A stretch of DNA of 64,000 bases from Dulcicalothrix desertica PCC 7102 (lineage in GTDB: Bacteria; Cyanobacteriota; Cyanobacteriia; Cyanobacteriales; Nostocaceae): contig NZ_RSCL01000026.1 of NCBI RefSeq assembly GCF_003991905.1, positions 62,001 through 126,000 of the forward strand, written 5' to 3'. Of the stretch, positions 30,967 to 48,833 are shown in pieces. The position numbers and the translations under genes are program-made. The notes below the pieces were generated by a model. It was given only the letters and a program-made list of their open reading frames with translations, made no database searches and was not told the DNA's origin. Positions within the stretch are counted from its first letter, which is position 1, and the number at the start of each line of letters is the position of its first letter.

Positions 30967-31004
30967 GAATATAAGCGACATTAAGCACCTAGTACCATAT
31001 TGAA

Positions 31005-35257: not shown

Positions 35258-35262
35258 TTAAA

Positions 35263-35327
35263 AGTTAGGAGTTAGGAGTTAGGAGTTAGGAGTTAGGACT
35301 CAGCACTCAGCACTCATCACTCAGCAC
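35263..35327. repeat. two arrays of heptamers, GTTAGGA then CTCAGCA
   Basis: Five GTTAGGA units (35263-35297) are followed by four CTCAGCA-like units (35299-35327). The second array contains the stop codon of the convergent TPR gene. Confidence 0.85.
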
Positions 35328-36398
35328 TTTTAAAAAAACTAATCCACTATATAACTGAAATGCTGAGTCCCAGTTACTTGCTTCTTTACGAAAGAGATGC
35401 ACATTAGACTGAATATGACTCAGCATTTCGTTTTGGTCTAACGCTGTTTCAGCAAATGGAGTAAAATCAGACCAAATTTTTACTTGTGGTAATTGTTCAT
35501 CAAGCCAACTAGACAAATTATTCCAATTGATACGAACAGTATTTTGACTATTTGGTAGAGTAATTTCGATTCCTTTCTTCCACTCGTATCCACCATCAAA
35601 AATTCTTAAAATACATTTTCTACCAGGAATATGTAAATCAGAAAATTGTGCATAGTCTAGAGTTTGAGTTTTACGCTCAAGTTTTCCTCGTGCATTACGG
35701 TCTACAACTTCTTCAAATATAGGTAGTAACCCGGTAACACGTGCTTTTACTTCGTTCCATTCAAACGTCAGGGAACCAAGTTGTTTACTTTGGTTATGAC
35801 AAACAACGGTAACTTCCCTACTATTTGACTCACTCTTCTGAAAATAATCTACTTGAAAAACCTGAATTTGCTGTAATGCTGCGAGCGTTGACCAAAAACA
35901 AGGAATCTCAGCTTGCTGTAATTGCTCCCCATAATATTTTAACTCCCCTATTGCCCCAGTTCGATACAGGCGCCAACCCCGACTAGGCAATAACAACCTC
36001 GCACTATAAGCATCCATCTGAGTAACTTTAGCAAATCTTTGTGCAGCTTGTGTTTTTAACTCGTTACTTATAGGTTCTAAAATCAACACACCAGCTTCAT
36101 TACCGTGAGTATCTCCCATCGCTTCAGAAATACCGCGTTTACGTTCTTCCTCCTCAAACTCGCGCAGTCGCTGTAAACCTTGACGTGCTTGAGCCACTAT
36201 TTTACTATTCGTTTCGTCGCGAAGCAGGCGCCGATAAATTTTTTCAGCATCTTGATATTTTCTCGATACCTCTTGGAGTCTTCCTACATAAAACTTAACC
36301 CAAGGGTCTTTTGGTGATTCTTGTAAAAGCTGTTTAAGTAATTTACCAGCAGTTTTATAATCTTGTTGTTCAAAGGCAGCTGCAACAGATTCAATCAT
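35307..36398 (-). CDS. tetratricopeptide-repeat protein
   Basis: A 363-residue cyanobacterial protein. Residues 1-85 form two or three TPR units (AAAFEQQDYKTAGKLLKQLL; DPWVKFYVGRLQEVSRKYQD; AEKIYRRLLRDE), followed by a charged helix and a globular domain (about 105-350) with strand-rich sequence (CILRIFDGGYEWKKGIEITL). The latter is unknown to me. TPRs bind partner proteins. The last residues (VLSDEC) and the stop are read from the heptamer array. Confidence 0.7.
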   Translation of the reverse strand: MIESVAAAFEQQDYKTAGKLLKQLLQESPKDPWVKFYVGRLQEVSRKYQDAEKIYRRLLRDETNSKIVAQARQGLQRLREFEEEERKRGISEAMGDTHGNEAGVLILEPISNELKTQAAQRFAKVTQMDAYSARLLLPSRGWRLYRTGAIGELKYYGEQLQQAEIPCFWSTLAALQQIQVFQVDYFQKSESNSREVTVVCHNQSKQLGSLTFEWNEVKARVTGLLPIFEEVVDRNARGKLERKTQTLDYAQFSDLHIPGRKCILRIFDGGYEWKKGIEITLPNSQNTVRINWNNLSSWLDEQLPQVKIWSDFTPFAETALDQNEMLSHIQSNVHLFRKEASNWDSAFQLYSGLVFLKVLSDEC

Positions 36399-36426
36399 AT
36401 ATATAGTATGTTACGTTACATCACGT

Positions 36427-36447
36427 TGTAAGCACTTTAGTGCTTTT
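36427..36447. repeat. AAGCACTTTAGTGCTT palindrome
   Basis: A copy of the GTAAGCACT repeat, between the TPR gene start and rsmE. Confidence 0.65.
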
Positions 36448-36500
36448 CCCCCCAAAACTAAAACGTAGAAATTTCGGATATTTATTTAGAGGTGCTGATG

Positions 36501-36526
36501 GTAAGGACTGAAGTCCTTATTACGAG
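36501..36526. repeat. GTAAGGACTGAAGTCCTTAT palindromic repeat
   Basis: A hairpin AAGGACT-GA-AGTCCTT with flank TACGAG. It overlaps the last seven bases of rsmE, including the stop codon. Confidence 0.75.
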
Positions 36527-37242
36527 TTGTTTTCCATCTCGGCAGCCAAAATAGACAAAACAACAAAAGGCGCCGTTACAGCACGTAAAATTCTTCTACC
36601 TAGCGAAACCATTTTAAATCCAGCATTCACAGCATTTTCTAACTCTTCCTGACTCCACCCACCTTCGGGCCCAATGGCAATAACAATCTTTAGCTGACCT
36701 TCACCAACTTGGCGCCAACACTTTAATAAATGTGGATTATCACCACGTCCCTCGCAAATGTACTTTTGTTCAGCTTCAAATAAATTCAACCCCTGAGTAA
36801 AACTAACTGGTTCATAAATAGTTGGAACAAACGCACGTTCGGATTGCTCTGCCGCTTCTGCTGCTATTCGGCGCCAACGCTCAAGTTTTTGCGAACTAGG
36901 GTTTAAAAGAGTACGCTCACTTATTATCGGAACAATAGTATCAACTCCTAACTCAGTGCAAATACGTACTACGTCATCAAATCCGTTACCTTTGGGCAGT
37001 GCTAACAATAAGCTGATAGATACTTTTAACTCTGTCTGTACCTCTAAAGCTTCTAATATCTCACCGTACTCAGACTGTAAGGAAGTTAACCACCATTTTC
37101 CCACCCCATCCATGACAATGAATTTATCACCATCAGATAACCGTAGAACCCTGGTTAGGTAATGAAGCTGTTCTTTTTCCAATACAACCTGATTATCTCT
37201 AATTTGCTGCGGAGAAATAGTAATACGTTGTAGTTGCGCCAT
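36520..37242 (-). CDS. rsmE: 16S rRNA (uracil-1498-N3)-methyltransferase
   Basis: A 240-residue SPOUT methyltransferase that modifies U1498 of 16S rRNA. The N-terminal PUA-like domain (about 1-70) has HYLTRVLRLSDGDKFIVMDG. The trefoil-knot domain has GNGFDDVVRICTELGVDTIV, AIGPEGGWSQEELENA and SLGRRILRAVTAPFVVLSIL, the SAM-binding knot. Length is normal. The stop codon is part of a dispersed palindrome. Confidence 0.93.
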   Translation of the reverse strand: MAQLQRITISPQQIRDNQVVLEKEQLHYLTRVLRLSDGDKFIVMDGVGKWWLTSLQSEYGEILEALEVQTELKVSISLLLALPKGNGFDDVVRICTELGVDTIVPIISERTLLNPSSQKLERWRRIAAEAAEQSERAFVPTIYEPVSFTQGLNLFEAEQKYICEGRGDNPHLLKCWRQVGEGQLKIVIAIGPEGGWSQEELENAVNAGFKMVSLGRRILRAVTAPFVVLSILAAEMENNS

Positions 37243-37354
37243 AAAAATTTATTTAGTCCAGTATAATATCTGACACATACGTCAATACATTACCCTCAAG
37301 AACAAATTACAGTAGTTATGACAGAGCAAAATAATTATCCTTTATATACAATCT

Positions 37355-38083
37355 ATGTTTAGCCAAGTATTAGAAATAGAATATTTATCACATCAGCAAA
37401 AAGATGCCATGTATTTGTTGCTTGGCAACCATTTTGATGGGGTAAGGCGAGATGTGTTTGAATCAGATTTGAGTAAGAAAAATTGGGTTATTTTGCTTGA
37501 AGACGAGAAAACTCAACAACTCAAAGGTTTTTCGACATTATTAATATACACTACGCAATTTAATAATGAAAATATTAATATAGTTTATTCTGGAGATACG
37601 ATTGTAGACCCTAGTGCTTGGTCGAGTTCCACACTGTCTCGCACTTGGATAACTTCTGTTCAGAAAATTAGGCGCCATTACCCAGAAGGTAAATTATACT
37701 GGTTGTTAATTTCAGGTGGTTTTCGTACCTATAGATTTTTACCGATATTTTGGCAGGAGTTTTATCCGCGATATGATAAAGCTACACCAGAAAATATCTC
37801 TGACTTAATGCACTTTTTAGGTTATCAGCGCTTTGGTGAGTCTTATAAACATATAGCAGGAATAGTTCGTTTTCCACATCCTCATGTACTTCGCGACGAG
37901 TTAAAAGAAATTCCATTAGAACGTTTACAAGACCCACATATCGAATTCTTTGCCAAATATAACCCAGGTTATATACGAGGTGATGAGTTAGTTTGTTTAG
38001 CTGAAATTAGCGAAGAAAATTTAACAAAAGCTGGTAGAAGAATTTGGTTTTCTAGAAACCTGGTTTCTTCTCAAAAATTCTAA
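37355..38083 (+). CDS. hypothetical, possibly GNAT-like acyltransferase
   Basis: A 242-residue soluble protein beginning MFSQVLEIEYLSHQQKDAMY. The alternating pattern with KGFSTLLIYTT, VYSGDTIVDPSAW and a helix SRTWITSVQKIRRHYPEGK resembles an N-acyltransferase (GNAT) fold, but no clear acyl-CoA loop is visible, so this is tentative. It lies 36 bp upstream of the first Rieske gene on the same strand and may be the first gene of the oxygenase cluster. Its last residues (RNLVSSQKF) and stop are read from a GAAACC/GGTTTC palindrome. Confidence 0.55.
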   Translation: MFSQVLEIEYLSHQQKDAMYLLLGNHFDGVRRDVFESDLSKKNWVILLEDEKTQQLKGFSTLLIYTTQFNNENINIVYSGDTIVDPSAWSSSTLSRTWITSVQKIRRHYPEGKLYWLLISGGFRTYRFLPIFWQEFYPRYDKATPENISDLMHFLGYQRFGESYKHIAGIVRFPHPHVLRDELKEIPLERLQDPHIEFFAKYNPGYIRGDELVCLAEISEENLTKAGRRIWFSRNLVSSQKF

Positions 38084-38118
38084 TAAAAATTAATTTATCG
38101 AATAGAAACCAGGTTTCT
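38054..38118. repeat. two GAAACC/GGTTTC palindromes flanking the gene junction
   Basis: AGAAACCTGGTTTCT (38054-38068) is inside the end of the preceding gene. AGAAACCAGGTTTCT (38104-38118) ends one base before the ATG of the first Rieske gene and occupies the place of a ribosome site. Confidence 0.8.
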
Positions 38119-38119
38119 T

Positions 38120-39121
38120 ATGTTTAATAAAATATTTAATAGCCCAGAATATTTTATCGAAGGGTGGTACTGGGCATTACCTTCACATCATCTCAAAAAA
38201 GGTCAAGTTAAACCTGTAACTCTTATGGGTCGAGACTTAGCAATATTTCGAGGACAAGACAGCTCAGTTACTGCTGTTGATGCATATTGTCCACATATGG
38301 GCGCCCATTTAGCAGAAGGAAAAGTAGAAGGTAACGCACTGCGCTGTTTTTTCCACAACTGGAAATTTGATGTTGACGGGACATGTATAGAAGTACCTTG
38401 TATGGGTGAAGCATTACCCGTCAAAATAAATACTTGGCAAACAGCAGAAAAGTACGGGATGATTTGGGTGTGGACAGGAAAAACGGCGCCCCCTGAGCGC
38501 TTACCCTTACCTTTCGTTCCTGAGTTAGAACACGAAGAATGTGATAGTGTTCTAGCAAAAAGATTTATCAAGAACTGTCACCCAAATGTTGTCATGGTGA
38601 ATGCTATAGATGCTCACCATTTCAACACAGTTCACAACTTTCCTGTAAAAATAGTATTTGAAAAAAACGAAATACAAAACGCTATCACTTTTAGCAATAT
38701 TACACGAGGAGGAGAAAATTCATTATTCCTGAAATTAATTCGTCCCTTTTATAAAAAAGCTGTGACATATAATATGTGTTACTGGTATGGAAGTACAGGT
38801 GTAGTTACAGTTGGTCCCGACTTCTTGCACTTCCATATTATGTTTACGTTGCGACTATTAGAAGGAGGAAAAACTGAAGGGCAAACAATTCTAATTACTA
38901 AAAAGCGCGCGGGAATACTTGGTTGGATTTTTAATAGAATAATATTGGCTTTAACTAATGCAGTCGGTAATTACTTTGCTAAAGGTGATACTAAAATCTT
39001 CCAAACGATTAAATTCGATTTGAAAACACCAACCAAAGCTGATAACTCCATCATGCAATTTATTCACCACGCAGAAAAACAAAAACCGCGAGTATGGTCA
39101 ACATGGGAAAAAAGTATTTAA
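38120..39121 (+). CDS. Rieske-type non-heme iron oxygenase A
   Basis: A 333-residue oxygenase alpha-subunit-like protein. The Rieske [2Fe-2S] ligands are Cys57/His59 (AYCPHMGAHL) and Cys76/His79 (CFFHNW), CxH-16-CxxH. The mononuclear iron ligands are probably Asp164, His167 and His172 in NAIDAHHFNTVHNF. These enzymes use O2 and two electrons to hydroxylate, demethylate or desaturate. Short for a dioxygenase alpha subunit; it resembles single-component oxygenases that take electrons from a ferredoxin, and a ferredoxin gene is in the cluster. The next gene starts after ten bases. Confidence 0.88.
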   Translation: MFNKIFNSPEYFIEGWYWALPSHHLKKGQVKPVTLMGRDLAIFRGQDSSVTAVDAYCPHMGAHLAEGKVEGNALRCFFHNWKFDVDGTCIEVPCMGEALPVKINTWQTAEKYGMIWVWTGKTAPPERLPLPFVPELEHEECDSVLAKRFIKNCHPNVVMVNAIDAHHFNTVHNFPVKIVFEKNEIQNAITFSNITRGGENSLFLKLIRPFYKKAVTYNMCYWYGSTGVVTVGPDFLHFHIMFTLRLLEGGKTEGQTILITKKRAGILGWIFNRIILALTNAVGNYFAKGDTKIFQTIKFDLKTPTKADNSIMQFIHHAEKQKPRVWSTWEKSI

Positions 39122-39131
39122 TATTAAAAGT

Positions 39132-40040
39132 ATGAATTATAAAATTACTGGTTTTGATATTCCTCATACTCACAAAGAAGATAAGCTGCGTCGAATATTA
39201 GACTCTGCGCTTCAAAGTAAAATAGGGAAAATAAAATCTTCTACAGACTTAATTTACTGGGATGCAGAACATTTTGATTTACACAAAGTCGATATTTTCG
39301 CAGATAGTACTTTAGAAGAACAAACCCAAATTTTACACCTTTGTAACCAAACACTGTTGGAAGAAGCTTACTTTATTGAAAAAGCTGGTATTGGTTACAT
39401 GTCAAAAATGGTTATGCTCGCAGAAACCACTGAAGAACGAATGCTCTACGCATTATTTAGCGCAGATGAAGTAACTCACCTTGCTAAAATAAGTTCTTTT
39501 TTACCAAACCCCGAATTAGTTTCTACAAATAACCCTTTCTTACATTTACTTGCTGATGTCGCAGAAACTTCTGACAAAGCTGTACTAATATTTGTACTGC
39601 AAATAATACTCGAAGGATGGGGGTTAACGCATTACCGAAACTTGGCAAAAAATTGTATAAGTACAGAACTCAAAGCAGTATTACAAAGCTTTTTAGAAGA
39701 CGAAAGTCGTCACCATGCAACTGGTGTTAGGTTATGCGAGCAAGTTTTGATAGAACATCAAAGTGAAAAAACCATTATTGAAGTACTCGCATCTTTTCTA
39801 CAAATGGTACAAGTCGGACCACAGGGAGTTGTCGCAGCAGTCGAGCAAGTTAAAGGTAGTTTATCACGACAGCAGAAAATAACCGTATTTCAACAATTAG
39901 GCGCCGAATATCATAGTAGCAGTCGTTTGAACTTACTACGTGGCTTAATGACAAACCCGCAAACACTCTCAATAGTTCAACAACTAGACGAACACAACGC
40001 TTTTACACCTTTTTCAGTAGAACAGTGTGCAAGCTTATAA
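39132..40040 (+). CDS. ferritin-like diiron protein
   Basis: A 302-residue, all-helical protein. The carboxylate-bridged diiron pattern is visible: Glu77/Glu78 or Glu84 (LLEEAYFIEKA), Glu113-x-x-His116 (ADEVTHL), Glu161 (ILEGWG) and Glu191-x-x-His194 (EDESRHH). Two ExxH motifs separated by a lone Glu are typical of four-helix-bundle diiron oxygenases and oxidases. The substrate is unknown. Ten-base gaps on both sides suggest co-translation with its Rieske and AurF-like neighbours. Confidence 0.75.
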   Translation: MNYKITGFDIPHTHKEDKLRRILDSALQSKIGKIKSSTDLIYWDAEHFDLHKVDIFADSTLEEQTQILHLCNQTLLEEAYFIEKAGIGYMSKMVMLAETTEERMLYALFSADEVTHLAKISSFLPNPELVSTNNPFLHLLADVAETSDKAVLIFVLQIILEGWGLTHYRNLAKNCISTELKAVLQSFLEDESRHHATGVRLCEQVLIEHQSEKTIIEVLASFLQMVQVGPQGVVAAVEQVKGSLSRQQKITVFQQLGAEYHSSSRLNLLRGLMTNPQTLSIVQQLDEHNAFTPFSVEQCASL

Positions 40041-40050
40041 ATAAAACATT

Positions 40051-41208
40051 ATGAATACAATTATAGAAAATCAAAAAGTCAACCGTAGGCTAGAAATAAA
40101 CCACAAACGTAACAAACAGCAAGACCACACCGCACTACTCGATGCTGCATCTGCTGCTTTCAATTACGAAGACTGTAAAAACGAATACTGGAACCCTGAA
40201 GAATTTTCCTTAATGTATGGCACTCCCTTATGGGAACAAGCGACTCCTAGCCAACGCATTATTTTAAATCAACTTTACTGGGTAGCATATTACTCGCAAA
40301 TCATCTCCGCAGAAATTGCTACCATTTATTTTAACCAAACTAGTGCAGCAGGACTTTACGCCCAAGAAGATTTTCGCATAGTTTGCGACACGCTTGATTT
40401 AGAATCGAGTCAAGAGCGCGCGCACATCAATGCTTTTAAAACGGTAGCGAACGAAGTTGAAACAGCATTATTTGGTAAACGTATATTTAGCTATCCTATG
40501 CGTAGTCCGTTTGCCGAAACAATGGTTTTTGCCGACACCAACTACTTCAAGCGCAAATGGAAAGAACTACAGTTAAAAGCTTTTGGGTTACTTTCAGCAG
40601 ATAACACCTTTTTGGCTTGTCAGTATTTTACAGTACGGGGAGTTAGAACACTCAACGGTAAACTCGTACAGCACAAGCTAAGTAACTACTACCAAAAACA
40701 TCCCCACCAAGAACAGGCGCCTATACCAGCCAAAATATCTTACTATCACTTCATGGACGAGAGTTTTCATTTTAACAGTTCGACAATTATCTCCCATGAT
40801 GTGATTGATTGTCTCAAACCACCAACAGAATTTGAAAAGTTAGTAGCAAACCTCGGTTTACAAGGTTGTCAAAAAGACCATTATCACTTTTCTTGTGTTA
40901 TCAACGGCATTTTTTGGTATGACCCCGCTTTATATAGTGCAGTTTACCAAATGTTGTGTTCACCTGTGTTTAGTATGGATGGCGCCGAAGCAAAAGAAAT
41001 GATGCGACGCTGTTTCACCGAAGAAAGCGAAGGACTACATCGTAGCTACAACACACATACCGAAGCAATGGAATCTTATAAAGTTTACCTAGAAAAACTC
41101 GATTATGTATGGAAAAGTAACAAAGAAATGACGTTGATGGGGTCTAACAACATTTCTAAATATTTAGCACATCAAACTAAAAAATTCAAACAGTTCGCAT
41201 CATCATGA
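40051..41208 (+). CDS. AurF-like diiron oxygenase
   Basis: A 385-residue helical protein. Candidate iron ligands are Glu88 (SAEIA), Glu122-x-x-His125 (QERAH) and the signature His233-x3-Glu237-x2-His240 (YYHFMDESFH). The last matches the HxxxExxH spacing of AurF, the p-aminobenzoate N-oxygenase; the 34-residue spacing of the first two Glu also fits. The fifth carboxylate may be Asp184. AurF-type enzymes oxidise amines to hydroxylamine or nitro groups, so N-oxidation is a plausible but unproved role. The stop overlaps the next start by four bases. Confidence 0.72.
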   Translation: MNTIIENQKVNRRLEINHKRNKQQDHTALLDAASAAFNYEDCKNEYWNPEEFSLMYGTPLWEQATPSQRIILNQLYWVAYYSQIISAEIATIYFNQTSAAGLYAQEDFRIVCDTLDLESSQERAHINAFKTVANEVETALFGKRIFSYPMRSPFAETMVFADTNYFKRKWKELQLKAFGLLSADNTFLACQYFTVRGVRTLNGKLVQHKLSNYYQKHPHQEQAPIPAKISYYHFMDESFHFNSSTIISHDVIDCLKPPTEFEKLVANLGLQGCQKDHYHFSCVINGIFWYDPALYSAVYQMLCSPVFSMDGAEAKEMMRRCFTEESEGLHRSYNTHTEAMESYKVYLEKLDYVWKSNKEMTLMGSNNISKYLAHQTKKFKQFASS

Positions 41209-42221
41209 AAATATTCAATAACCCCAACATCATAGCTAAAGGATGGTATATAGCTTGCCCAAGTAAAGACATCCCAAAAGGCAGAGTAAAATCTTTAACA
41301 TTATGCGGGCAAAAAATCGTCATCTTTCGTACAGCAAACGGACAACTCCACGCACTTGATGCATATTGTCCACACTTAGGAACCGACCTAGGAATAGGAA
41401 AAGTAGAAGGTAACTTTATTCGCTGTTACTTTCATCATTGGGCATTTGACGGTGAAGGAACTTGTCAAGATATTCCCTGTCAAAAAGAAATTCCTGCAAA
41501 AGCTAAATTACAAGCTTACAGTACAGATGAAAAATATGGCTTTATTTGGGTTTATCCTGATGCCAAGGCGCCAGAAGGTGTAGTAGAATTTGACGAACTC
41601 AAAGGTAAAACATTAATGGCAATGTTCGATAAACCCTTTGAACGAGGTTGTCATCACCACATTTGTATGATGAACGGTATCGATGCTCAACATTTACAAA
41701 CCGTGCATAAATTAAACATCGATATGAAATTATCCTTACAAGCAAATGCCAGAGGTGACATTATAGATTTTACTTTAAATGGTGAATTTCCTAATACAAC
41801 CCCTAGAGAAAGACTCGCACGGCAAATTTTAGGAAACTATTACGAATACACCATGAGGTACGCACACGGATGTATAGGACTTTTAACAATTATGAAGAAA
41901 GTCAAATTTGTGGCGCCATTACACATGATTTATGCTTACACCCTTATAGATAAAGGAACGCGCATTCAACCTATATATATAGCAGAAAAAAGAAAAGGAA
42001 TATTAGGCGCCTTCAAAACAAAAATATTACTATTACTAACAAAAGCCGCTTACTACTTCCTAAGAGACGAAGACGGCATGATTTACGACAATATAAATTA
42101 TAACCCTAACGCCCTCTTAAGCATAGATGAACCATTAGTAAAATACATGCACTACGTAGACCAACTTCAACCCTCAATATGGTCGAAAGAAAGCCCAGAA
42201 ACCCGGTTTCCCCATCACTGA
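41205..42221 (+). CDS. Rieske-type non-heme iron oxygenase B
   Basis: A 338-residue paralogue of oxygenase A. Rieske ligands: Cys55/His57 (AYCPHLGTDL) and Cys74/His77 (CYFHHW). Mononuclear iron ligands: Asp160, His163, His168 (GIDAQHLQTVH). Similar C-terminal half with a hydrophobic KTKILLLLTKAAYYF segment that may touch the membrane. It is translationally coupled (ATGA) to the AurF-like gene. The extreme C-terminus (PETRFPHH) is read from a GAAACC/GGTTTC repeat. Confidence 0.88.
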   Translation: MKIFNNPNIIAKGWYIACPSKDIPKGRVKSLTLCGQKIVIFRTANGQLHALDAYCPHLGTDLGIGKVEGNFIRCYFHHWAFDGEGTCQDIPCQKEIPAKAKLQAYSTDEKYGFIWVYPDAKAPEGVVEFDELKGKTLMAMFDKPFERGCHHHICMMNGIDAQHLQTVHKLNIDMKLSLQANARGDIIDFTLNGEFPNTTPRERLARQILGNYYEYTMRYAHGCIGLLTIMKKVKFVAPLHMIYAYTLIDKGTRIQPIYIAEKRKGILGAFKTKILLLLTKAAYYFLRDEDGMIYDNINYNPNALLSIDEPLVKYMHYVDQLQPSIWSKESPETRFPHH

Positions 42222-42270
42222 ATAAAACAACCCAACACTAAGTACCAAAGGAAACCGGGTTTCTCAACAG
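42200..42270. repeat. GAAACC/GGTTTC repeats at the end of oxygenase B
   Basis: AGAAACCCGGTTTC at about 42199-42212 lies inside the coding end of oxygenase B, and GGAAACCGGGTTTCTC follows at about 42250, so the two can pair with each other as a terminator-like hairpin. Confidence 0.6.
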
Positions 42271-42371
42271 CAACGAAAAATTATCAAAAACCAAAAGGCG
42301 CCAATTTAAAGATAACTCCTCTGTGAACTAGTTAGGCTCTGTGGTGAAAATAAAAAAATTAAATTAGTAGA

Positions 42372-42399
42372 GGCGGGCAGGGATGCCCGCTCCACAAGA
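42372..42399. repeat. half copy of the TCTTGTGG-family element before the ferredoxin gene
   Basis: GGCGGGCAGGGATGCCCGC followed by TCCACAAGA ends nine bases before the ferredoxin ATG (42409). It replaces the expected ribosome-site region and may affect translation or mark a former insertion. Confidence 0.65.
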
Positions 42400-42408
42400 G
42401 ATATAACA

Positions 42409-42696
42409 ATGAATAAAAAACTTTGTAAAATTAGTTTTGAACAAAATTATCCTGATATACATCTGAACAAAAACGATAATCTTTCTGAATACCTAACCAT
42501 CCAAAACTCTCCTATATTATTTGGATGTCGAACAGGAATTTGCGGAACCTGCCTTGTATCTATAAAAGGAGATATACCTCCCCCAAGTGAAGAAGAAAAA
42601 GAAATCTTAGAAATCTTCGCACCAGAAAATCCACAAGCGAGACTAGCTTGTCAAATACAACTTACAAATGATATTGAAATATCCCCCTTAACATAA
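42409..42696 (+). CDS. plant-type [2Fe-2S] ferredoxin
   Basis: A 95-residue ferredoxin. Cluster ligands are in FGCRTGICGTCLV (C-x4-C-x2-C, residues about 40-48) with the fourth Cys in RLACQIQL (about 81). The N-terminal strand part is shorter than in photosynthetic PetF, and the PPPSEEEKEILE segment is like ferredoxins serving oxygenases. Its position between three Rieske enzymes suggests it delivers their electrons. No reductase gene is in the cluster, so a housekeeping ferredoxin reductase or photosystem I would have to supply it. Confidence 0.9.
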   Translation: MNKKLCKISFEQNYPDIHLNKNDNLSEYLTIQNSPILFGCRTGICGTCLVSIKGDIPPPSEEEKEILEIFAPENPQARLACQIQLTNDIEISPLT

Positions 42697-42698
42697 AC

Positions 42699-43721
42699 AT
42701 GAAATTCGAGGATTTTTGGTACATAGTTTGTGAAAGCAAACAACTCAAAACAAATACCGTTCTTTCACGTACAATCTTAAACGAGTGGTTAGTAATATTC
42801 CGAGACCCAGACGGAAAACCTGTGGCACTACGAGATAAATGTATGCACAGAAACAGTCGTCTATCCAAAGGAAAAGTTCATCAAGGACAAATACACTGTC
42901 CATACCACGGTTGGGTATATGACAAAAACGGCAAAGTCGTAACCATCCCCTCCGAAGCGAACAACCCCCGTATATGTAACGCACGTCAAACACTCACCTA
43001 CAACACCACAGAACAAGATGGTTTTGTATACGTCAAACTATCACGCAACTCATCTGAAGATTTTAAACCTTTTGTGATGCCCAACTACCAAAAACCAGGA
43101 TGGGAAACAGTGCGTGTAATAAACCGTTTTCAAAACAACGTCACCAACTGCGCTGAAAATTTTATTGATATCCCCCATACAGTTAGCGTTCACCCAGGAG
43201 TCTTTCGCACACCTCGTCAACAAAAACTAGAAATGTTGGTAGAAAGAAAAAACGGTACAGTTATTGCCCAATACCAAAACGAAACCAATAACCTAGGATG
43301 GTTCGCGCGCTTTCTCAACCGCAAAGCATCACAAATACATCATATAGATACATTTCATATGCCCAATATTACCAGCGTTGAATACGATATGGGCAAACAC
43401 CGAAAACTTTTTATAACGAGTCAGTCAATACCAGAAACCGAAAACTCAACGTTAGTATACACCGATGTCACATATAACTACGGCATTTGGAACAAACTCG
43501 CACGTCCCTTTGTACATTGGACAGCTCAATATATTATCCATCAAGATATAAAAGCATTAAAAATACAATCAGAAGTCATAGAAAAATATGGCGCCCAATT
43601 TGCCAACACACCCGCTGATACCATTCATGTATTCGTCGAATCAATACGTAATACTATCACAGCAGGAGAAGACCCTCGTAAATTACCGAATAAATCAGTA
43701 AGCGTAGAATTTTGGGTATAA
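42699..43721 (+). CDS. Rieske-type non-heme iron oxygenase C
   Basis: A 340-residue oxygenase less similar to A and B. Rieske ligands: Cys48/His50 (DKCMHRNSRL) and Cys67/His70 (CPYHGW). Iron ligands: Asp157, His160, His165 (ENFIDIPHTVSVHPG), the classic form of ring-hydroxylating and monooxygenase alpha subunits. It starts two bases after the ferredoxin stop, so the two probably work together. The mRNA after this gene passes through REP-like repeats before the next gene. Confidence 0.9.
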   Translation: MKFEDFWYIVCESKQLKTNTVLSRTILNEWLVIFRDPDGKPVALRDKCMHRNSRLSKGKVHQGQIHCPYHGWVYDKNGKVVTIPSEANNPRICNARQTLTYNTTEQDGFVYVKLSRNSSEDFKPFVMPNYQKPGWETVRVINRFQNNVTNCAENFIDIPHTVSVHPGVFRTPRQQKLEMLVERKNGTVIAQYQNETNNLGWFARFLNRKASQIHHIDTFHMPNITSVEYDMGKHRKLFITSQSIPETENSTLVYTDVTYNYGIWNKLARPFVHWTAQYIIHQDIKALKIQSEVIEKYGAQFANTPADTIHVFVESIRNTITAGEDPRKLPNKSVSVEFWV

Positions 43722-43739
43722 AAAATCTAAATATAATTT

Positions 43740-43880
43740 GTCATTCTGAGCGTAGCGAAGAATCTCGATTATATTTAAACTTTTCAAGATGCTTCGTTCC
43801 TCAGCATGACAAGAGAGATTGTAAGATGCTACCCTGCGGGAAAACTGCGTTAACGTTCCTCAGCATGACAAGAGAGGATG
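43740..43880. repeat. REP-like repeats (TCATTCTGAGCGTAGCGAAG and CTTCGTTCCTCAGCATGAC)
   Basis: One copy of the TCATTCTGAGCGTAGCGAAG repeat (43741-43760) is followed by two copies of the family seen at 26384, in opposite orientation. They fill the 196-bp gap between oxygenase C and the hydroxylase gene. Confidence 0.75.
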
Positions 43881-43917
43881 ACAAGATACACAAAGAATAA
43901 ACCTTATATTTAATTTT

Positions 43918-44646
43918 ATGATAGTTTTTCCTGCTTTTATAATTTTGTTATCTCTAACCTTTGCTAATCAAAATATTATAACTCTGCTGGTTAGCAAAAA
44001 TCGTCAAGATTGGCTTGTGGATATTATTGGTTTATTTTTTCAAGGAATAATTATCCCTATATTACAAATCACGATTGTTTTTCAATTTTATCATTACTTA
44101 TTCCCTAGCTTAAAATCCACACTTACATTACATCCATTAATAGTATTTAGTCTTAGCTTTATTTGTGTAGACTACCTGTACTACTGGAATCATCGTTTAT
44201 TCCACACACCTTGGTTATGGTCGGTGCATAAAGTTCACCACACAGTAACAACAATGGACGTAGTAGGAACTTCGCGCAATACATTATGGACAAGCTTTTT
44301 GATTATATACCTATGGGTTCACTCTTTGTTTATATACTTACTCCAAGACCCAACTTGGTATATTTTTGGCGCCAGTTTAACCTCTGCTTTAGATTTATGG
44401 CGCCATAGTAAATTTACACCAAAACCAACATCTATAATTTACCATTTACTTGCACCTTGGTTAATTTTACCGCAAGACCATGCATGGCATCACGCGCGTA
44501 ATTATAAAGGTGGTAACTATGGAGCAAACTTTAAAATATGGGATAAAATGCATGGTACTTATTCAGATAATGAAAAACAACCAGAAAATTTAGGTGCCGT
44601 ATCAAATCTAAGTTTATCACAAAAACTTTTCTTTCCTTTTATATGA
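43918..44646 (+). CDS. membrane fatty acid hydroxylase/sterol desaturase family protein
   Basis: A 242-residue membrane diiron enzyme with four or more hydrophobic segments. The histidine boxes are HRLFH (92-96), HKVHH (104-108) and HAWHH with a fourth His region (WDKMHGTY). The family hydroxylates or desaturates lipid chains, sterols or carotenoids in the membrane using O2. The substrate here is probably a lipid-like intermediate of the cluster. The stop overlaps the next gene by four bases. Confidence 0.87.
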   Translation: MIVFPAFIILLSLTFANQNIITLLVSKNRQDWLVDIIGLFFQGIIIPILQITIVFQFYHYLFPSLKSTLTLHPLIVFSLSFICVDYLYYWNHRLFHTPWLWSVHKVHHTVTTMDVVGTSRNTLWTSFLIIYLWVHSLFIYLLQDPTWYIFGASLTSALDLWRHSKFTPKPTSIIYHLLAPWLILPQDHAWHHARNYKGGNYGANFKIWDKMHGTYSDNEKQPENLGAVSNLSLSQKLFFPFI

Positions 44647-45242
44647 CTTTACTAAGTACAGTACTTTCTTTTTTTCCAACTTTAGTTATGCTAATGATAT
44701 TCGGTTCATTTCTAGGAATTTGCTATCAACCTGGAATTATTAGTGTACTAAGTTTATTCTTTTCTATTTATATCTTCCCTTTACTTATTTATCAAATACA
44801 TAATTACTTTTTACCGATAAAAGAAGATATTAGTTATCTTTGTGGCAAAGAATATTCACCTTGGTGGGGAAGTCATCAAATTCAATCTATTTATATAACG
44901 TTTCCTGTGTTTGAAGCCATATTGCGCTTAATACCAGGAGCATTTTCTCTATGGTTAAGATTATGGGGTTCAACAGTTGGTAAAAAAGTTTATTGGACAC
45001 CAAAATTAGAAATCGCTGACAGAGGATTATTAGAAATAGGTGATAATGTTATTTTTGGATATGGTGTTGGAATTTATTCCCATATAATTAAACCCAAAAA
45101 ACAAGATTTATTACTATACGTCAAAAAAGTAAAAATTGGTAGCAATGTATTTGTAGGCGCCGGAAATAATATTGCACCAGGGGTAAATATTAACGATAAC
45201 ACATACATACCTATATCTACCACACTTCCAGTAGTAAAATAA
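44643..45242 (+). CDS. membrane-linked hexapeptide-repeat acyltransferase-like protein
   Basis: A 199-residue protein. Two N-terminal hydrophobic helices (about 3-28 and 30-50) are followed by a left-handed beta-helix of hexapeptide repeats (LEIADRGLLEIGDNVIFGYG; VKIGSNVFVGAGNNIAPG). HII after GVGIYS could give the catalytic His. Similar domains occur at the ends of some cyanobacterial NRPS proteins and in O-acyltransferases. It may move an acyl group onto or off the cluster product at the membrane. Confidence 0.75.
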   Translation: MTLLSTVLSFFPTLVMLMIFGSFLGICYQPGIISVLSLFFSIYIFPLLIYQIHNYFLPIKEDISYLCGKEYSPWWGSHQIQSIYITFPVFEAILRLIPGAFSLWLRLWGSTVGKKVYWTPKLEIADRGLLEIGDNVIFGYGVGIYSHIIKPKKQDLLLYVKKVKIGSNVFVGAGNNIAPGVNINDNTYIPISTTLPVVK

Positions 45243-45244
45243 TT

Positions 45245-46726
45245 ATGAATATATTTATACAAATTTTTGGGAAAATTATTGCACCTGCTGCAAATAGATT
45301 TAATCGCGCGCTGAAAAAACCAGAAATCACGCAAAAAAATCTCCAAAAAGAACTTTTTCGACGTTTTACTCAAAGTGAATATGGAAAATCTTTAAATATT
45401 ATACACTGGCGCCAAATACCTATTGTTGAGTACCAAGATATTGAAAGCTGTATAAACAACCTGACTTCTGAACCAATTATTTTTTACGAAAAAACATCAG
45501 GAAGTCGGAGTGCAGCAAAATTAATACCTTATACAAAAGCTTTGCGTCGTTCGTTTAATCATATGTTCTGTGTTTGGGCACATGACTTAATTGTCAATGG
45601 TCCAAAATTCTCAACAGGAAGAATTTACTTTTGTATATCACCACAGTTAACTCCACCCGCAGATGTTACAACTTTACAAGATGACTCTCAATATCTTGAT
45701 GGTTGGTTACGCGCTATTCTCAGCCATTTTTTAGTGTCACCTCCTGGAATACAGCATATACACAATGCTGAAGAATTTAAACACAAACTTTCTCAAGCGC
45801 TACTACTCGCAGAAGACTTAGAAATTATCTCAATATGGAGTCCTAGTTTTCTCAAAGTCATTCTTGACTATATATACTCTCATCACAAACAACTCGCTGA
45901 GTCGTTAAAAACTAAAATATCAGCCGAACGCTACAACTTACTATTGGCGCCACCAGAATATAGTAAACTCTGGCGCCATCTCAAACTAATTTCATGTTGG
46001 GACAGTGCAAACGCTGCGGATGGCGCCCAAACATTACGAAAGCTTTTCCCAGGTGTATTAGTACAGGGTAAAGGACTTTTAGCAACTGAGGCGCCAATGA
46101 CTATTCCCCTGATACCAGCGAAAGGATGTGTACCAATGTTGGATGAAGTATTTTTCGAGTTTGAAGACGAAAAAGGTAATATACATCTTCTCCACGAACT
46201 TAAAAAAGCAGAAGTATACGAAATTATTATTTCTCAAAAAGGTGGGTTATACCGTTACCGTATTAAAGACCGAGTTCGCGTTACCCACTTTTATCACGCT
46301 ACTCCTTGTCTAGAATTTATAGGACGTACACAAGAAATTAGTGATTTAGTTGGAGAAAAACTGCACTCTGAGTTCGTCCGTCAAGTACTTGATAATTTAC
46401 CTTTGGCTGAAACCAACTTTAAAACTTTCATACCTACACACATCCCAACAGCCAGATATATCCTTTTACTAGATACAGCGAATACAGATACGTTGGAACT
46501 TGCAGAAAAATTAGATACACTGCTGCAACAGTCTCCTCAATATCGTCATGCAAGACTTTTGGATCAACTGGCGCCAGCTTCCATAATAGTAAATCCTCAT
46601 GCGGCTGAAATTCTCAGTTTACATAAAACACGCGAAGGAAAAAAATGGGGTGACTTGAAACATGATATTTTGAATACGGTGCCTATTAATAGAGAATTAT
46701 TAAGCGAATTGAGTAATGTTTTTTAG
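45245..46726 (+). CDS. GH3-family acyl-acid-amido synthetase-like enzyme
   Basis: A 493-residue member of the GH3 family within the ANL adenylating superfamily. The ATP motif is EKTSGSRSAAKLIPYTKA, and a second nucleotide motif is GGLYRYRIKDRVRV (Tyr, Arg and Asp conserved). In plants GH3 enzymes link jasmonate or auxin to amino acids through acyl-adenylates; bacterial members join acids to amines. It is probably the amide- or ester-forming step of this cluster. It begins two bases after the acyltransferase stop and is the last gene of the run. Confidence 0.85.
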   Translation: MNIFIQIFGKIIAPAANRFNRALKKPEITQKNLQKELFRRFTQSEYGKSLNIIHWRQIPIVEYQDIESCINNLTSEPIIFYEKTSGSRSAAKLIPYTKALRRSFNHMFCVWAHDLIVNGPKFSTGRIYFCISPQLTPPADVTTLQDDSQYLDGWLRAILSHFLVSPPGIQHIHNAEEFKHKLSQALLLAEDLEIISIWSPSFLKVILDYIYSHHKQLAESLKTKISAERYNLLLAPPEYSKLWRHLKLISCWDSANAADGAQTLRKLFPGVLVQGKGLLATEAPMTIPLIPAKGCVPMLDEVFFEFEDEKGNIHLLHELKKAEVYEIIISQKGGLYRYRIKDRVRVTHFYHATPCLEFIGRTQEISDLVGEKLHSEFVRQVLDNLPLAETNFKTFIPTHIPTARYILLLDTANTDTLELAEKLDTLLQQSPQYRHARLLDQLAPASIIVNPHAAEILSLHKTREGKKWGDLKHDILNTVPINRELLSELSNVF

Positions 46727-46786
46727 AATACTTGTTATAAGTACAAGAATTTAAGACACTAGCCTGTAACGTTTAATTAGTTACAT

Positions 46787-47341
46787 ATGAATTTGTTGAA
46801 GAATACAGGCGTTGCTTTAGGCTTGTCACTTATTACAGGCACCAGTCAAGTTACAGAAAGCACATTCGCTATACCAACCAAACCTCAGCAAACGGCACAA
46901 TCAACATCAAAAATTAAATCTAACGCAGTTTTTGCGCCTATATTGCCTAAATTAAAGAAAAATAGCAAAATTGCAATCTTACTACCTAAGCAAATTCCTG
47001 GCTCAGAAAGCGAAAATAAATTATACGCAGTTGTTGAAACCGCAACACCTAACAAGTATGGAATAATACTTGGATTTACTCCAGATTGTAATGGTGGAAC
47101 AGCCTGCCGTTATGGTTTTGTCGGTGCTGAATCTGTTACAAATAAAACACCACGTCAAAGAGGTAAAGTTGTATCGTTACAAAATCGCACAACTGCTTAT
47201 TTTACAGAATCACAATGTGGCGCCAATTGTTCTGATGGAATATTAACTTGGCGCCGAAGGGGTGTTCAATATAGTGCTGGTTTAAAAGCTGGTAAATTAA
47301 ACGATGTGTTACAAATGGCTAATTCTTTTGTGGCGCCGTGA
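46787..47341 (+). CDS. exported hypothetical protein
   Basis: A 184-residue protein. The N-terminus (MNLLKNTGVALGLSLITG) is signal-peptide-like. The mature part has SKIAILLPKQIPGSESE, a Cys-containing centre (TPDCNGGTACRYGFVG; SQCGANCSDGILTW) that could form two disulfides, and a final helix. This looks like a conserved periplasmic cyanobacterial protein without known function. It lies 60 bp after the GH3 gene but has its own leader, so cluster membership is doubtful. Confidence 0.65.
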   Translation: MNLLKNTGVALGLSLITGTSQVTESTFAIPTKPQQTAQSTSKIKSNAVFAPILPKLKKNSKIAILLPKQIPGSESENKLYAVVETATPNKYGIILGFTPDCNGGTACRYGFVGAESVTNKTPRQRGKVVSLQNRTTAYFTESQCGANCSDGILTWRRRGVQYSAGLKAGKLNDVLQMANSFVAP

Positions 47342-47684
47342 TGTAGAGGCGGATTAACTTGCTCTGACTGCGGTTATAACAGACTCTATCAGTAAGTCTC
47401 CTGTTTTAACACGTAAATCTTAAATTGCTTGGTTAAAAATTGTAACAGCATGGATTTTTAGAATTATAATTAATGTCTCTATCTATATAGTGACATTATA
47501 TTTATATTAATAATATGACGCATTAGAAGACAGTTCTAATACCTAGCAAAAAATATACTTAAATTTCATTAATTTTGTAATATTAAACTTAACGACTTTT
47601 TAGTACATACATATTTAAATAATAAGGCAATGGCGCCTAAGAATCAATATGCCATAGAAAATTTCACTTATCTTGTGAAATGTA
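47342..47684. other. gene-free spacer
   Basis: About 340 AT-rich bases between the exported protein and the repeat at 47685. I see no supported gene. Confidence 0.4.
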
Positions 47685-47788
47685 TCTTGTGGGATGGGCA
47701 TCCTCGCCCGTCCGAAAAAGTCCGGACTCAAAAACTCCCAAAAAGTCCTAAAATTGAAAGAACAGGCAGGGATGCCTGTTCCACAAGA
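47685..47788. repeat. TCTTGTGG-family inverted-repeat element
   Basis: TCTTGTGGGATGGGCATCC at the left and GGATGCCTGTTCCACAAGA at the right enclose a core that also contains a small GTCCGGAC palindrome. It lies just after the PRC-barrel gene stop. Confidence 0.75.
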
Positions 47789-47804
47789 GTTTTTCAACCT
47801 GACC

Positions 47805-48773
47805 TTACTCTTCGTATTCGGGTTGTTTTTGTCTGACTTTTTCGGGGATGTTCAGGGGGGTTGGCGCCTCGTCGTCATCCCAGGCATCACGGTCTAGGTC
47901 TTCGTCTTCGTATTGTATGACTGGTTTTGGTAGTTCGTAACTGGCTGATTTTTCGTATTTATCTTTGCCAGATGCTTCACTCCAGTTATCGTCTTCGTCG
48001 TCGTCATCGTAGCGGGGTGCTGGCTCATAACTGGCGCGCGCTTCCATGACTTGGCGCCTTGGTGCTGGTATCGGTTCGTAGTCGTCTTCGTCCCATGCTG
48101 GTTCTTCGACTCTTTCGGGAGCGCGAACTTTTGCCATTGGTGCTTCGAGTGGTATACCGCTGGGAAGTTGTTTGTCTGCGGCAACTGTACGAGGTTGAGC
48201 GTAGTATTCTTCGTCACCGCTTCTATCCCAAGGCGCCCGACCAATACCCAAGCGTTCGAGTAAACCTACAGATAATTGTGTGAGACGTTCTTCGGCGCCT
48301 TCAAATACAATTAAACGGTTTGGGCCTGTGCTGACAATTTCTTCGATTGATAGTTCGTATGTGCTTAAAACTTGTTCGGGTAGTTGAGGTAGTCCTACTG
48401 ATGCAATAACTATTGTTAATAGTTTGCCGTTTGCTGTATCAAATTTAAAGCCGCGTACTCGACCCAAAGCTTCACCTGTTTCGGTGATAACTTCCCAGTT
48501 GACGAGATTACTATAAGCTTCAACGTCAATATCTTCGATTGCGTCTTCGTTCTCTACTAAGATGACGTCAGCGATTTTTCTGATGCTATCTAAGTACATG
48601 TAACGGGGCACACCGGAAACGGAAATCAGGCTATCTCGTAGGCTAAATGCCACAACCTCGCGTTGGTCAACGTCTACCCATACCTGACTAATAATACCGA
48701 GTCGCCTAGCGTCGCTGGTGACTACCTGTGTGTTTAAAATATCCGAGCGTCTAATAGTTTGTTCTGAGGTCAT
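47805..48773 (-). CDS. PRC-barrel domain protein
   Basis: A 322-residue protein with two PRC-barrel-type modules: residues about 8-75 (RSDILNTQVVTSDARRLGII...VWVDVDQREVVAFSLRD) and about 85-160 (VNWEVITETGEALGRVRGFK). PRC barrels occur in RNA-processing (RimM) and photosynthetic proteins. The C-terminal 150 residues are acidic and low-complexity (YDDDDEDDNW). It is upstream of smc in the same minus-strand direction order, 60 bp after smc, and may be co-transcribed with it. Function unknown. Confidence 0.8.
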   Translation of the reverse strand: MTSEQTIRRSDILNTQVVTSDARRLGIISQVWVDVDQREVVAFSLRDSLISVSGVPRYMYLDSIRKIADVILVENEDAIEDIDVEAYSNLVNWEVITETGEALGRVRGFKFDTANGKLLTIVIASVGLPQLPEQVLSTYELSIEEIVSTGPNRLIVFEGAEERLTQLSVGLLERLGIGRAPWDRSGDEEYYAQPRTVAADKQLPSGIPLEAPMAKVRAPERVEEPAWDEDDYEPIPAPRRQVMEARASYEPAPRYDDDDEDDNWSEASGKDKYEKSASYELPKPVIQYEDEDLDRDAWDDDEAPTPLNIPEKVRQKQPEYEE

Positions 48774-48833
48774 TCTAATACCGAGTCCTGAATCTCGAAT
48801 CCGGTTAATCTATACACTATTATTAACAAAAAC

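What the first reader, a model, noticed from the sequence alone, without database searches (positions are those of the whole stretch)
37355..46726. Cryptic oxygenase-rich biosynthetic cluster: three Rieske, two diiron, hydroxylase, ferredoxin, hexapeptide acyltransferase, GH3
Ten same-strand genes with gaps of 2-200 bp and three ATGA or near-ATGA overlaps encode six oxygen-activating enzymes of three classes, their ferredoxin, and two acyl-handling enzymes. There is no PKS, NRPS or terpene synthase gene, so standard cluster finders may miss it. An AurF-like N-oxygenase signature with a GH3 amide-former and a lipid hydroxylase suggests a heavily oxidised, possibly N-oxidised, acyl-amide or lipid-like metabolite. 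This is the best candidate for an undescribed system in the window.
Basis: partly seen in the sequence, partly recalled or inferred. Interest (0 to 1): 0.85.

Follow-up and report, generated by a model that had tools for sequence, protein, structure and literature searches.

The report
Orphan CylC-Rieske lipid-tailoring gene cluster
This is a well-preserved ten-gene pathway of a cyanobacterial type that was catalogued in 2021 but whose product is still unknown; its key enzyme resembles enzymes that put chlorine on fatty chains rather than the nitrogen-oxidising enzyme first proposed.

Summary
Ten same-strand genes (37355-46726) encode three Rieske oxygenases, two ferritin-like diiron proteins, a ferredoxin, a membrane fatty-acid-hydroxylase-family enzyme, a hexapeptide acyltransferase, a GH3 amide synthetase and a GNAT-fold protein without a Pfam family. 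The cluster is strongly conserved: in 292 sampled genomes of the phylum, the same 18 carry close homologues of the AurF-like gene and of the GH3 gene, even where genes lie scattered. It is not undescribed: it fits the 'Rieske-containing' CylC-homologue clusters of Eusebio et al. 2021 (36 of 95, product unknown). The 'AurF-like N-oxygenase' is a CylC-type dimetal enzyme, with the QExxH and HxxDExxH motifs of diiron halogenases and not AurF's Asp. At the one variable active-site position this clade has Gln in 93 of 93 distinct sequences, against Glu in 11 of 11 sampled genes of other CylC types. Best reading: carrier-free (possibly cryptic) chlorination and multiple oxidation of a fatty or lipid chain, then amide formation by GH3. 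The chemistry is inferred. Added here: the GH3 and GNAT components, persistence of the genes sought when dispersed, and the Glu/Gln split by clade. Moderate interest; new member of a known kind.

The parts
37355..38083 (+). g1: GNAT-fold protein (242 aa), putative N-acyltransferase; no Pfam/NCBIfam family
   Evidence: No family; AlphaFold2 model pLDDT 90.4; Foldseek vs PDB: 133 matches at E<=0.001, led by GNAT acetyltransferases (50 listed)
38120..39121 (+). g2: Rieske oxygenase 1 (nearest solved relatives SxtDIOX/SxtT and KshA, N-terminal half)
   Evidence: PF00355 E 1e-23; C57/H59/C76/H79 and D164/H167/H172/D290 in 73 of 73 aligned copies
39132..40040 (+). g3: ferritin-like diiron protein (302 aa)
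   Evidence: Ferritin_2 E 0.0004, below cut-off; E78, E83, E113xxH116, E161, E191xxH194 in 74 of 74 aligned copies
40051..41208 (+). g4: CylC-type dimetal (diiron) halogenase homologue, Gln207 clade; the 'AurF-like' gene of the finding
   Evidence: QExxH 121-125, HxxDExxH 233-240, E88; Gln207 in 98 of 98 sequences, 93 distinct; model pLDDT 87.5, best fold match CmlI at E 0.053
41205..42221 (+). g5: Rieske oxygenase 2 (KshA-like N-terminal part); ATGA overlap with g4; moved or absent in some holders
   Evidence: PF00355 E 3.5e-24; ligands in 59 of 59 aligned copies; only 30-38% matches in G119 and G278
42409..42696 (+). g6: plant-type [2Fe-2S] ferredoxin
   Evidence: PF00111 E 4.7e-9; C40, C45, C48, C81 in 69 of 69 aligned copies
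42699..43721 (+). g7: Rieske oxygenase 3 (VanA_C; nearest solved relatives SxtDIOX/SxtT and dicamba demethylase)
   Evidence: PF00355 E 1.4e-25, VanA_C E 1.2e-7; ligands in 61 of 61 aligned copies
43918..44646 (+). g8: membrane fatty-acid-hydroxylase / sterol-desaturase superfamily enzyme
   Evidence: PF04116 E 1.7e-24; nine histidines in 57 of 57 aligned copies; hydrophobic segments
44643..45242 (+). g9: hexapeptide-repeat acyltransferase with a hydrophobic N-terminal part
   Evidence: PF00132 E 2.4e-7; hydrophobic 1-53; His147 in 54 of 54 aligned copies
45245..46726 (+). g10: GH3-family ATP-dependent acyl-amide synthetase
   Evidence: PF03321/PF23571/PF23572; motifs TSGSxxxxK, ATE, GLYRYRxxD, with 4 single exceptions at two positions in 48 copies; nearest solved structure JAR1

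Best explanation
The ten genes are one orphan biosynthetic pathway, a member of the 'Rieske-containing' CylC-homologue cluster class of cyanobacteria (class membership about 0.97). The most likely mechanism is as follows. A fatty or lipid-like chain from primary metabolism, not held on a dedicated carrier protein, is functionalised at unactivated carbons. The CylC-type diiron enzyme g4 chlorinates an sp3 C-H (inferred; the product may keep the chlorine, or a later enzyme may displace it). The ferritin-like diiron protein g3, the membrane hydroxylase g8 and the three Rieske oxygenases g2, g5, g7 hydroxylate, desaturate or oxidise other positions. The ferredoxin g6 supplies electrons, fed by the host's ferredoxin/photosystem pool, because no reductase is among the ten. 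GH3 (g10) activates the acid with ATP and joins it to an amine or amino acid. The GNAT-fold g1 and the hexapeptide enzyme g9 add one or two further acyl groups. The product would be a heavily oxidised, possibly chlorinated, acyl-amide or amino lipid. Shown: gene set, fold or family, conserved candidate catalytic residues, co-occurrence. Inferred: substrate, order of steps, chlorination, amide partner.
For: Catalogue match: Rieske-containing CylC clusters encode 2-4 Rieske proteins, mostly a sterol-desaturase-family protein and a single CylC homologue, occur chiefly in Nostocales and Oscillatoriales, and have no known product (PMC8406957). g4 motifs and the nine active-site positions. NocO, a CylC homologue, is a diiron halogenase assayed with ferredoxin and ferredoxin reductase. 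Linkage: 18 of 18 g4-orthologue genomes among 292 have a GH3 match at E<=1e-85 and no other genome has (threshold chosen after seeing the list, next best 3e-72); g3 is in the same 18 plus 3 others. Seven of the 18, the window's genome included, hold all ten genes within 20 kb; in 12 of the 18 whose set looked split, rearranged or incomplete near g4, g7, g8 and g9 are found in 12 of 12 and g5 in 10 of 12. Protein distances of the other nine genes follow g4's (r 0.85-0.96, 0 of 999 permutations as high). GH3 motifs intact, and the bacterial GH3-like OlsH makes N-acyl ornithine with ATP (PMC12493201).
Against: I found no assay of any member of this CylC clade in the passages read; Eusebio et al. 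say that some CylC homologues may perform other oxidations. The Glu-to-Gln change falls on a residue whose Ala variant was inactive in NocO, so this clade might not halogenate. GH3 enzymes also act on other acids (jasmonate, benzoates, auxin). The nearest solved Rieske relatives include steroid, aromatic and saxitoxin-pathway enzymes, so a ring-shaped or terpenoid substrate is not excluded. No CylK-like gene is seen among the ten by Pfam. Six of 49 full-length loci show no g7 and twelve no g10 within 10 kb; g1, g2 and g6 were not sought genome-wide.
Confidence: 0.5

Rival explanations
1. g4 is not a halogenase: with Gln in place of the variable Glu, this clade uses the CylC scaffold for another C-H oxidation (hydroxylation, desaturation or cyclisation) in a pathway for a non-halogenated oxidised acyl amide.
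For: Gln is fixed in 98 of 98 orthologue sequences (93 distinct) and Glu in 12 of 12 loci (11 genes) of other CylC types, so the groups differ at the active site; E252A inactivates NocO; no carrier protein among the ten; the survey's authors allow other oxidations.
Against: The six predicted metal ligands, the signature Gln of QExxH and the Asp of HxxDExxH are all kept. In the predicted CylC structure the variable Glu already lies outside the primary metal sphere, leaving a site for chloride, so Gln there need not abolish halide binding.
Confidence: 0.33
2. The pathway acts on a terpenoid (hopanoid, sterol-like or carotenoid) skeleton rather than a fatty chain, the Rieske enzymes oxidising methyl groups and GH3 conjugating the resulting acid.
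For: All three Rieske proteins match the 4beta-methylsterol monooxygenase SdmA model best in NCBIfam, though far below its cut-off; KshA is among the nearest solved relatives of g2 and g5; g8 is in the FA_hydroxylase superfamily, which I recall as including sterol and carotenoid enzymes.
Against: Scores are 70-94 bits against a cut-off of 600, over roughly the N-terminal half; no terpene synthase hit among the ten; CylC and NocO, the relatives assayed in the paper read, act on fatty acyl chains.
Confidence: 0.12
3. One reading: g4 is an AurF-type N-oxygenase and the product carries an oxidised nitrogen (nitro, N-hydroxy).
For: Pfam AurF is the only family hit (E 0.00035, below cut-off); the fold matches with the highest TM-scores listed are the N-oxygenases CmlI (rank 1) and AurF (rank 30).
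Against: AurF has Asp before ExxH and a seventh ligand Glu196; g4 has Gln at both places. Full-length relatives are CylC types, about 27-32% identical, while the AurF model matches only residues 45-137.
Confidence: 0.04
4. Chance neighbourhood of unrelated oxygenases without a common pathway.
For: Some holders have the genes dispersed, and some full-length loci hold only part of the set.
Against: Order and co-occurrence across 80 named loci, the 18-of-18 profile and persistence of the genes sought when dispersed.
Confidence: 0.01

Closest known systems
'Rieske-containing' CylC-homologue gene clusters (Eusebio et al. 2021, PMC8406957)
   Same: Two to four Rieske proteins, mostly a sterol-desaturase-family protein, one CylC homologue, acyltransferases in most, no carrier protein, chiefly Nostocales and Oscillatoriales, product unknown (and passages).
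   Different: Nothing found that excludes membership. 'GH3' has 0 occurrences in that paper by search count, and a GNAT is not named in the parts read; both belong to the set by the evidence here.
'PriA-containing' clusters of Synechocystis (same paper)
   Same: A CylC homologue with a Rieske and a ferritin-like gene beside PriA and a diguanylate cyclase, other functions dispersed. Two sampled genomes (G076, G093) look like this, and all five further genes sought (g5, g7-g10) lie elsewhere in them.
   Different: Ours is one contiguous block of ten.
CylC / NocO dimetal halogenases (PMC12101540)
   Same: QExxH, HxxDExxH and the helix-1 Glu conserved; best fold match is an AurF-family structure.
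   Different: About 27-32% identical to the other CylC-type genes sampled here; Gln instead of Glu at the NocO E252 position; no FAAL, ACP or PKS among the ten.
AurF / CmlI N-oxygenases
   Same: Fold (weak E-values).
   Different: No Asp before ExxH and no seventh ligand Glu; different partners.
GH3-like OlsH ornithine-lipid pathway of planctomycetes (PMC12493201)
   Same: GH3 amide synthetase in a lipid context; nucleotide-binding motifs.
   Different: g10 scores 15.9 bits against OlsH's cut-off of 620; no alpha/beta-hydrolase hit like OlsI among the ten.

Membership tests
Rieske-containing CylC-homologue BGC | A CylC homologue | tested here: met
   Motifs and nine-position table; the published primer CF for one CylC group reads AATCAWCTTTAYTGGGTRGC and g4 at about 40267 reads aatcaactttactgggtagc
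Rieske-containing CylC-homologue BGC | Two to four proteins with Rieske domains | tested here: met
   Three
Rieske-containing CylC-homologue BGC | Mostly a sterol-desaturase-family protein, acyltransferases, and no carrier protein | tested here: met
   FA_hydroxylase g8, Hexapep g9, GNAT-fold g1; no PP-binding hit in the ten
Rieske-containing CylC-homologue BGC | CylC homologue falls in the paper's Rieske/PriA clade | tested here: inconclusive
   The paper's own sequences were not aligned and no tree was built; here the PriA-type genes are 58-59%, the other orthologues 56-98% and other CylC types 27-32% identical to g4
CylC dimetal halogenase | QExxH and HxxDExxH motifs plus a helix-1 Glu | tested here: met
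   98 of 98 sequences examined, 93 distinct
CylC dimetal halogenase | Glu at the ninth, variable position (NocO E252) | tested here: not met
   Gln207 in 98 of 98; the 2025 paper says a small subset of CylC homologues has Gln there, so this does not by itself exclude the family
CylC dimetal halogenase | Halogenating activity with ferredoxin-type electron supply | not testable with these tools
   Needs protein; a ferredoxin gene (g6) is in the cluster
AurF-type N-oxygenase | Asp before ExxH and seventh ligand Glu196 | tested here: not met
   Gln121 and Gln207; definition from PMC12101540
Rieske non-haem iron oxygenase (g2, g5, g7) | CxH...CxxH cluster motif and 2-His-1-Asp mononuclear site | tested here: met
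   73 of 73, 59 of 59, 61 of 61 aligned copies; which Asp is the third ligand is recalled from the family and not shown by a structure
GH3 acyl-amide synthetase (g10) | Three nucleotide-binding motifs | tested here: met
   TSGS....K, ATE and GLYRYRxxD in the window, compared with the motifs printed in PMC12493201; exceptions S87T in 1 and R339K/Q in 3 of 48 copies
OlsH lyso-ornithine-lipid synthetase | NCBIfam NF052613 cut-off of 620 bits | tested here: not met
   15.9 bits

The most novel reading that the evidence does not exclude
A separate, carrier-independent branch of diiron halogenases: loss of the variable active-site carboxylate (Glu to Gln, fixed in this clade) hard-wires an open halide site, much as the missing Asp ligand does in the mononuclear-iron halogenases. 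It would serve a widespread, unseen family of chlorinated or cryptically chlorinated oxidised amino lipids shared by cyanobacteria and, by the sampled genomes, by another class of the same phylum.
Probability: 0.3. Interest if true: 0.78.

Novelty: new member of a known kind. Interest (0 to 1): 0.47.

Why it matters
The pathway is spread over several orders of cyanobacteria and one other class of the phylum, and the genes sought are kept even when scattered, which suggests a product of general use rather than a one-strain curiosity. Its product is unknown, and my four searches of the open-licence library found none reported. If g4 chlorinates a substrate that is not tied to a carrier protein, it could be a handier C-H halogenation catalyst than CylC, as Eusebio et al. 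remark. The clade-wide Glu/Gln split offers a natural test of what the ninth active-site residue does.

Tried and rejected
Plasmid tblastn with g4 found 4 records, all at 27-30% identity. A viral-contig scan found no relative among 25 pattern matches. No tRNA in the window and no Rfam match at the gathering threshold in 35000-50000. Promoter and terminator scans gave counts near or below shuffled expectation (24 vs 34.8; 8 vs 6.9), so they say nothing. PDB sequence profiles found nothing for g4 at E<=1 and nothing for g8 at E<=0.1; for g3 the two weak matches were not useful. Genes recurring next to the cluster elsewhere (called amidohydrolase-like and glycosyltransferase-like by eye, not by a search, and an ORF of about 140 aa before g5) were grouped but are not in the window's cluster and were not pursued. 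A saxitoxin-type reading was rejected: SxtT/SxtDIOX are the nearest solved Rieske structures of g2 and g7, over about the N-terminal half, and the ten genes show no PKS hit. An ornithine-lipid reading was considered because g8, g10 and a GNAT recall OlsE, OlsH and an N-acyltransferase; scores for OlsE and OlsH are far below cut-off.

The geometry of the metal site in the model was not measured, because the model is not among the files given to the Python box (one search listed them). A second structural look (pdb_via) was unavailable. No tree was built. Homologues outside the phylum were not sought beyond the one named scan.


Full report
WHAT IS THERE. The window holds ten + strand ORFs at 37355-46726 with gaps of 36, 10, 10, -4, 187, 2, 196, -4 and 2 bp. 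Upstream lie two ORFs on the other strand (35307-36398, and 36520-37242, which I recall as RsmE-like); downstream a small + strand ORF (46787-47341) and then ORFs on the other strand from 47805. Of four flanking ORFs tested, the two upstream ones recur in 3, and the downstream ones in 2 and 4, of 49 full-length loci, all in Calothrix records; so the conserved unit is g1-g10. Family hits: g2, g5, g7 Rieske; g6 Fer2; g8 FA_hydroxylase; g9 Hexapep; g10 GH3; g3 Ferritin_2 and g4 AurF below cut-off; g1 none. The host is close to Calothrix sp. PCC 7103 and PCC 7716 by g4 (98%); G000 has 11.4 Mb.

WHAT g1 IS. An AlphaFold2 model from 16 sequences (pLDDT 90.4) matches GNAT-superfamily structures in the PDB (133 matches at E<=0.001, 50 listed; top hits AAC(2')-Ia). 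A sequence profile alone gave only a hint (E 0.6). TM-scores by query length are about 0.35-0.43, so one GNAT domain is matched; 'N-acyltransferase' is a reading of the fold, not an activity.

WHAT g4 IS. The 2025 study of NocO and CylC (PMC12101540; passages, and parts 1-2 of 3 of its main section) defines nine active-site residues of diiron halogenases, seven of them in QExxH and HxxDExxH. In AurF an Asp stands in place of that Gln, and a seventh ligand, Glu196, binds metal. g4 has SQERAH and HFMDESFH. Over 80 named loci, 17 phylum-sample loci and the window (98 sequences, 93 distinct; five genomes appear in both sets) eight of nine positions never vary (E88, Q121, E122, H125, H233, D236, E237, H240). 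The ninth, which I align with NocO E252 / CylC E283 / AurF E196, is Gln207 in 98 of 98. In 12 loci of other CylC-type genes (11 genes, since L019 and L030 lie in one) it is Glu in 12 of 12. Of these, the one whose neighbours I checked as L050 (the gene of L019/L030) has the FAAL-ACP-CylC-PKS layout, while a Synechocystis-like one (L048, the gene of L027) lies near an RTX protein and transporter genes. The 2025 paper notes that a small subset of homologues has Gln there; that this subset is the Rieske-cluster clade is my inference, since its supplement was not read. The predicted fold (pLDDT 87.5) has CmlI as best match, but no match reaches E<=0.001: CmlI E 0.053, AurF rank 30 with E 0.39; these two have the highest TM-scores of the 50 listed (0.43-0.44 by query).

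WHAT THE OTHERS ARE. Candidate catalytic residues were checked in the named loci with an aligned copy covering at least 85% of the query at 38% identity or more: g2 73 of 73, g5 59 of 59, g7 61 of 61, g3 74 of 74, g6 69 of 69, g8 57 of 57, g9 (one His) 54 of 54, with no exception; g10 48 copies with four single exceptions at two positions. The choice of residues rests on recalled family knowledge plus invariance. g10's nearest solved relatives are plant GH3 amide synthetases, JAR1 first; the bacterial GH3-like OlsH joins fatty acids to ornithine with ATP (PMC12493201, passages). g8 and g9 have hydrophobic segments, so part of the route is probably at the membrane.

CONSERVATION. One scan of named genomes found 159 stretches with a relative of g4, of which the best 80 were kept. 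Held with g4 in these loci (up to 10 kb each side): g3 in 75, g2 in 73, g6 in 71, g7 in 64, g1 in 63, g5 in 62, g8 in 59, g9 in 54 and g10 in 50 of 80, many contigs being short. In the 49 loci of at least 21,000 bases the counts are 48, 48, 48, 43, 45, 45, 43, 40 and 37 in the same order; so six full-length loci lack g7 and twelve lack g10 nearby, and one (L068) shows only g4 and g5. All ten genes, partial matches counted, are in 33 of 80, 15 of these in exactly the window's order and 16 with g5 moved to the front; in 75 of 80 all cluster genes found lie on one strand. Protein distances of each other gene follow those of g4 (r 0.85-0.96; 0 of 999 permutations). This shows shared inheritance but does not separate vertical descent from transfer of the block, and related genomes alone would give high values.

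PHYLETIC PROFILE. In 292 sampled genomes of the phylum g4 orthologues (E<=1e-150) are in 18. GH3 matches at E<=1e-85 are in the same 18 and in no other genome; weaker ones are in 7 more, the best at 3e-72, so the cut was set after seeing the list. g3 is in the same 18 and in 3 others. If independent, 18 of 18 would have a probability near 1e-28, an overstatement because genomes are related. Seven of the 18 (with the window's) have all ten genes within a stretch of at most 20 kb, one of them, G004, on both strands. I then searched 12 of the 18 whose set looked split, rearranged or incomplete near g4, G004 among them: g7, g8 and g9 were found in 12 of 12, and g5 in 10 of 12: G278 and G119 have only 30-38% matches, and G038's best (46%) is partial. 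In two Synechocystis-like genomes (G076, G093: g1-g4 beside an 831-aa protein that I take for PriA from the paper's description) g5, g7, g8-g9 and g10 lie at separate places. g1, g2 and g6 were not sought genome-wide. Three holders (G004, G018, G038) are of another class of the phylum, probably Vampirovibrionia (inferred from the paper's mention of Melainabacteria and from genome size). One locus is from a bin named Planctomycetota (L126; 63% to g4, nearest neighbour 66%); mis-binning is not excluded.

KNOWN OR NEW. Eusebio et al. 2021 (PMC8406957; abstract, part 1 of 2 of the Results, the Discussion and passages read) sorted 95 CylC-encoding clusters and named the largest group (36) 'Rieske-containing', with no known product. 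[quoted passage not shown] In the 'PriA-containing' clusters of Synechocystis the other functions are dispersed. Our cluster meets each architectural feature I could test. 'GH3' has 0 occurrences in that paper by search count. Searches for a later product (open-licence PMC library only) found none. The nostochloroside (ngl) cluster of PMC10849952 is a different one, with PKS genes (passages).

MECHANISM. Committed reading: a carrier-free acyl chain is chlorinated by g4, oxidised by g3, g8 and the Rieske enzymes with electrons through g6, amidated by g10 and further acylated by g1 and g9. Shown: the parts and their co-occurrence. Inferred: everything about substrate and order. The Gln207 state can be read two ways: as a hard-wired open halide site, or as a departure from halogenation; E252A in NocO is inactive, which does not decide about Gln. 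I put about 0.5 on the full statement and 0.33 on the non-halogenase rival.

SCORE. The finding is real and worth testing, but it is a new member of a catalogued, still unexplained kind; interest 0.47.

Noticed in passing
window 1-64000: GGCGCC occurs 119 times (about 6 expected from a first-order model) while the cyanobacterial HIP1 word GCGATCGC (name recalled) occurs 2 times: a different highly iterated palindrome.
   Followed up: partly
window 38055, 42198 and 14799: Palindrome GAAACCYGGTTTC lies near the 3' ends of g1 and g5 and once elsewhere in the window; a 26-base element GTCATTCTGAGCGTAGCGAAGAATCT lies in the g7-g8 gap at 43740.
   Followed up: partly
L144:8237-15135: A g1 homologue at 59% identity beside a GH3 (33%), a fatty-acid desaturase and a VanA-like Rieske protein in genome G199, which lacks a close g4 orthologue: a related GNAT-GH3 module with other oxidases.
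   Followed up: partly
L143:4409-13636: A g1-like protein (31%) near a GH3 protein and two B12-binding radical-SAM proteins in genome G077, of another class of the phylum: another GNAT-GH3 module.
   Followed up: partly
L133:8108-10509: A reduced set g1-g3-g9 without g4 in genome G058.
   Followed up: partly
L131:8546-9514: A second g3-like gene (44-46%) elsewhere in the window's own genome, on another contig than the cluster.
   Followed up: no
L048:751-12674: A second, CylC-type gene in a Synechocystis-like genome (G076) lies near a 2453-aa RTX-repeat protein and ABC-transporter/FtsX genes.
   Followed up: no
window 29206-31818: Two tandem ORFs that look like serine/threonine kinases (by eye, no search), the second split between two frames (31005-31559 and 31426-31818): possible frameshift or sequencing error.
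   Followed up: no
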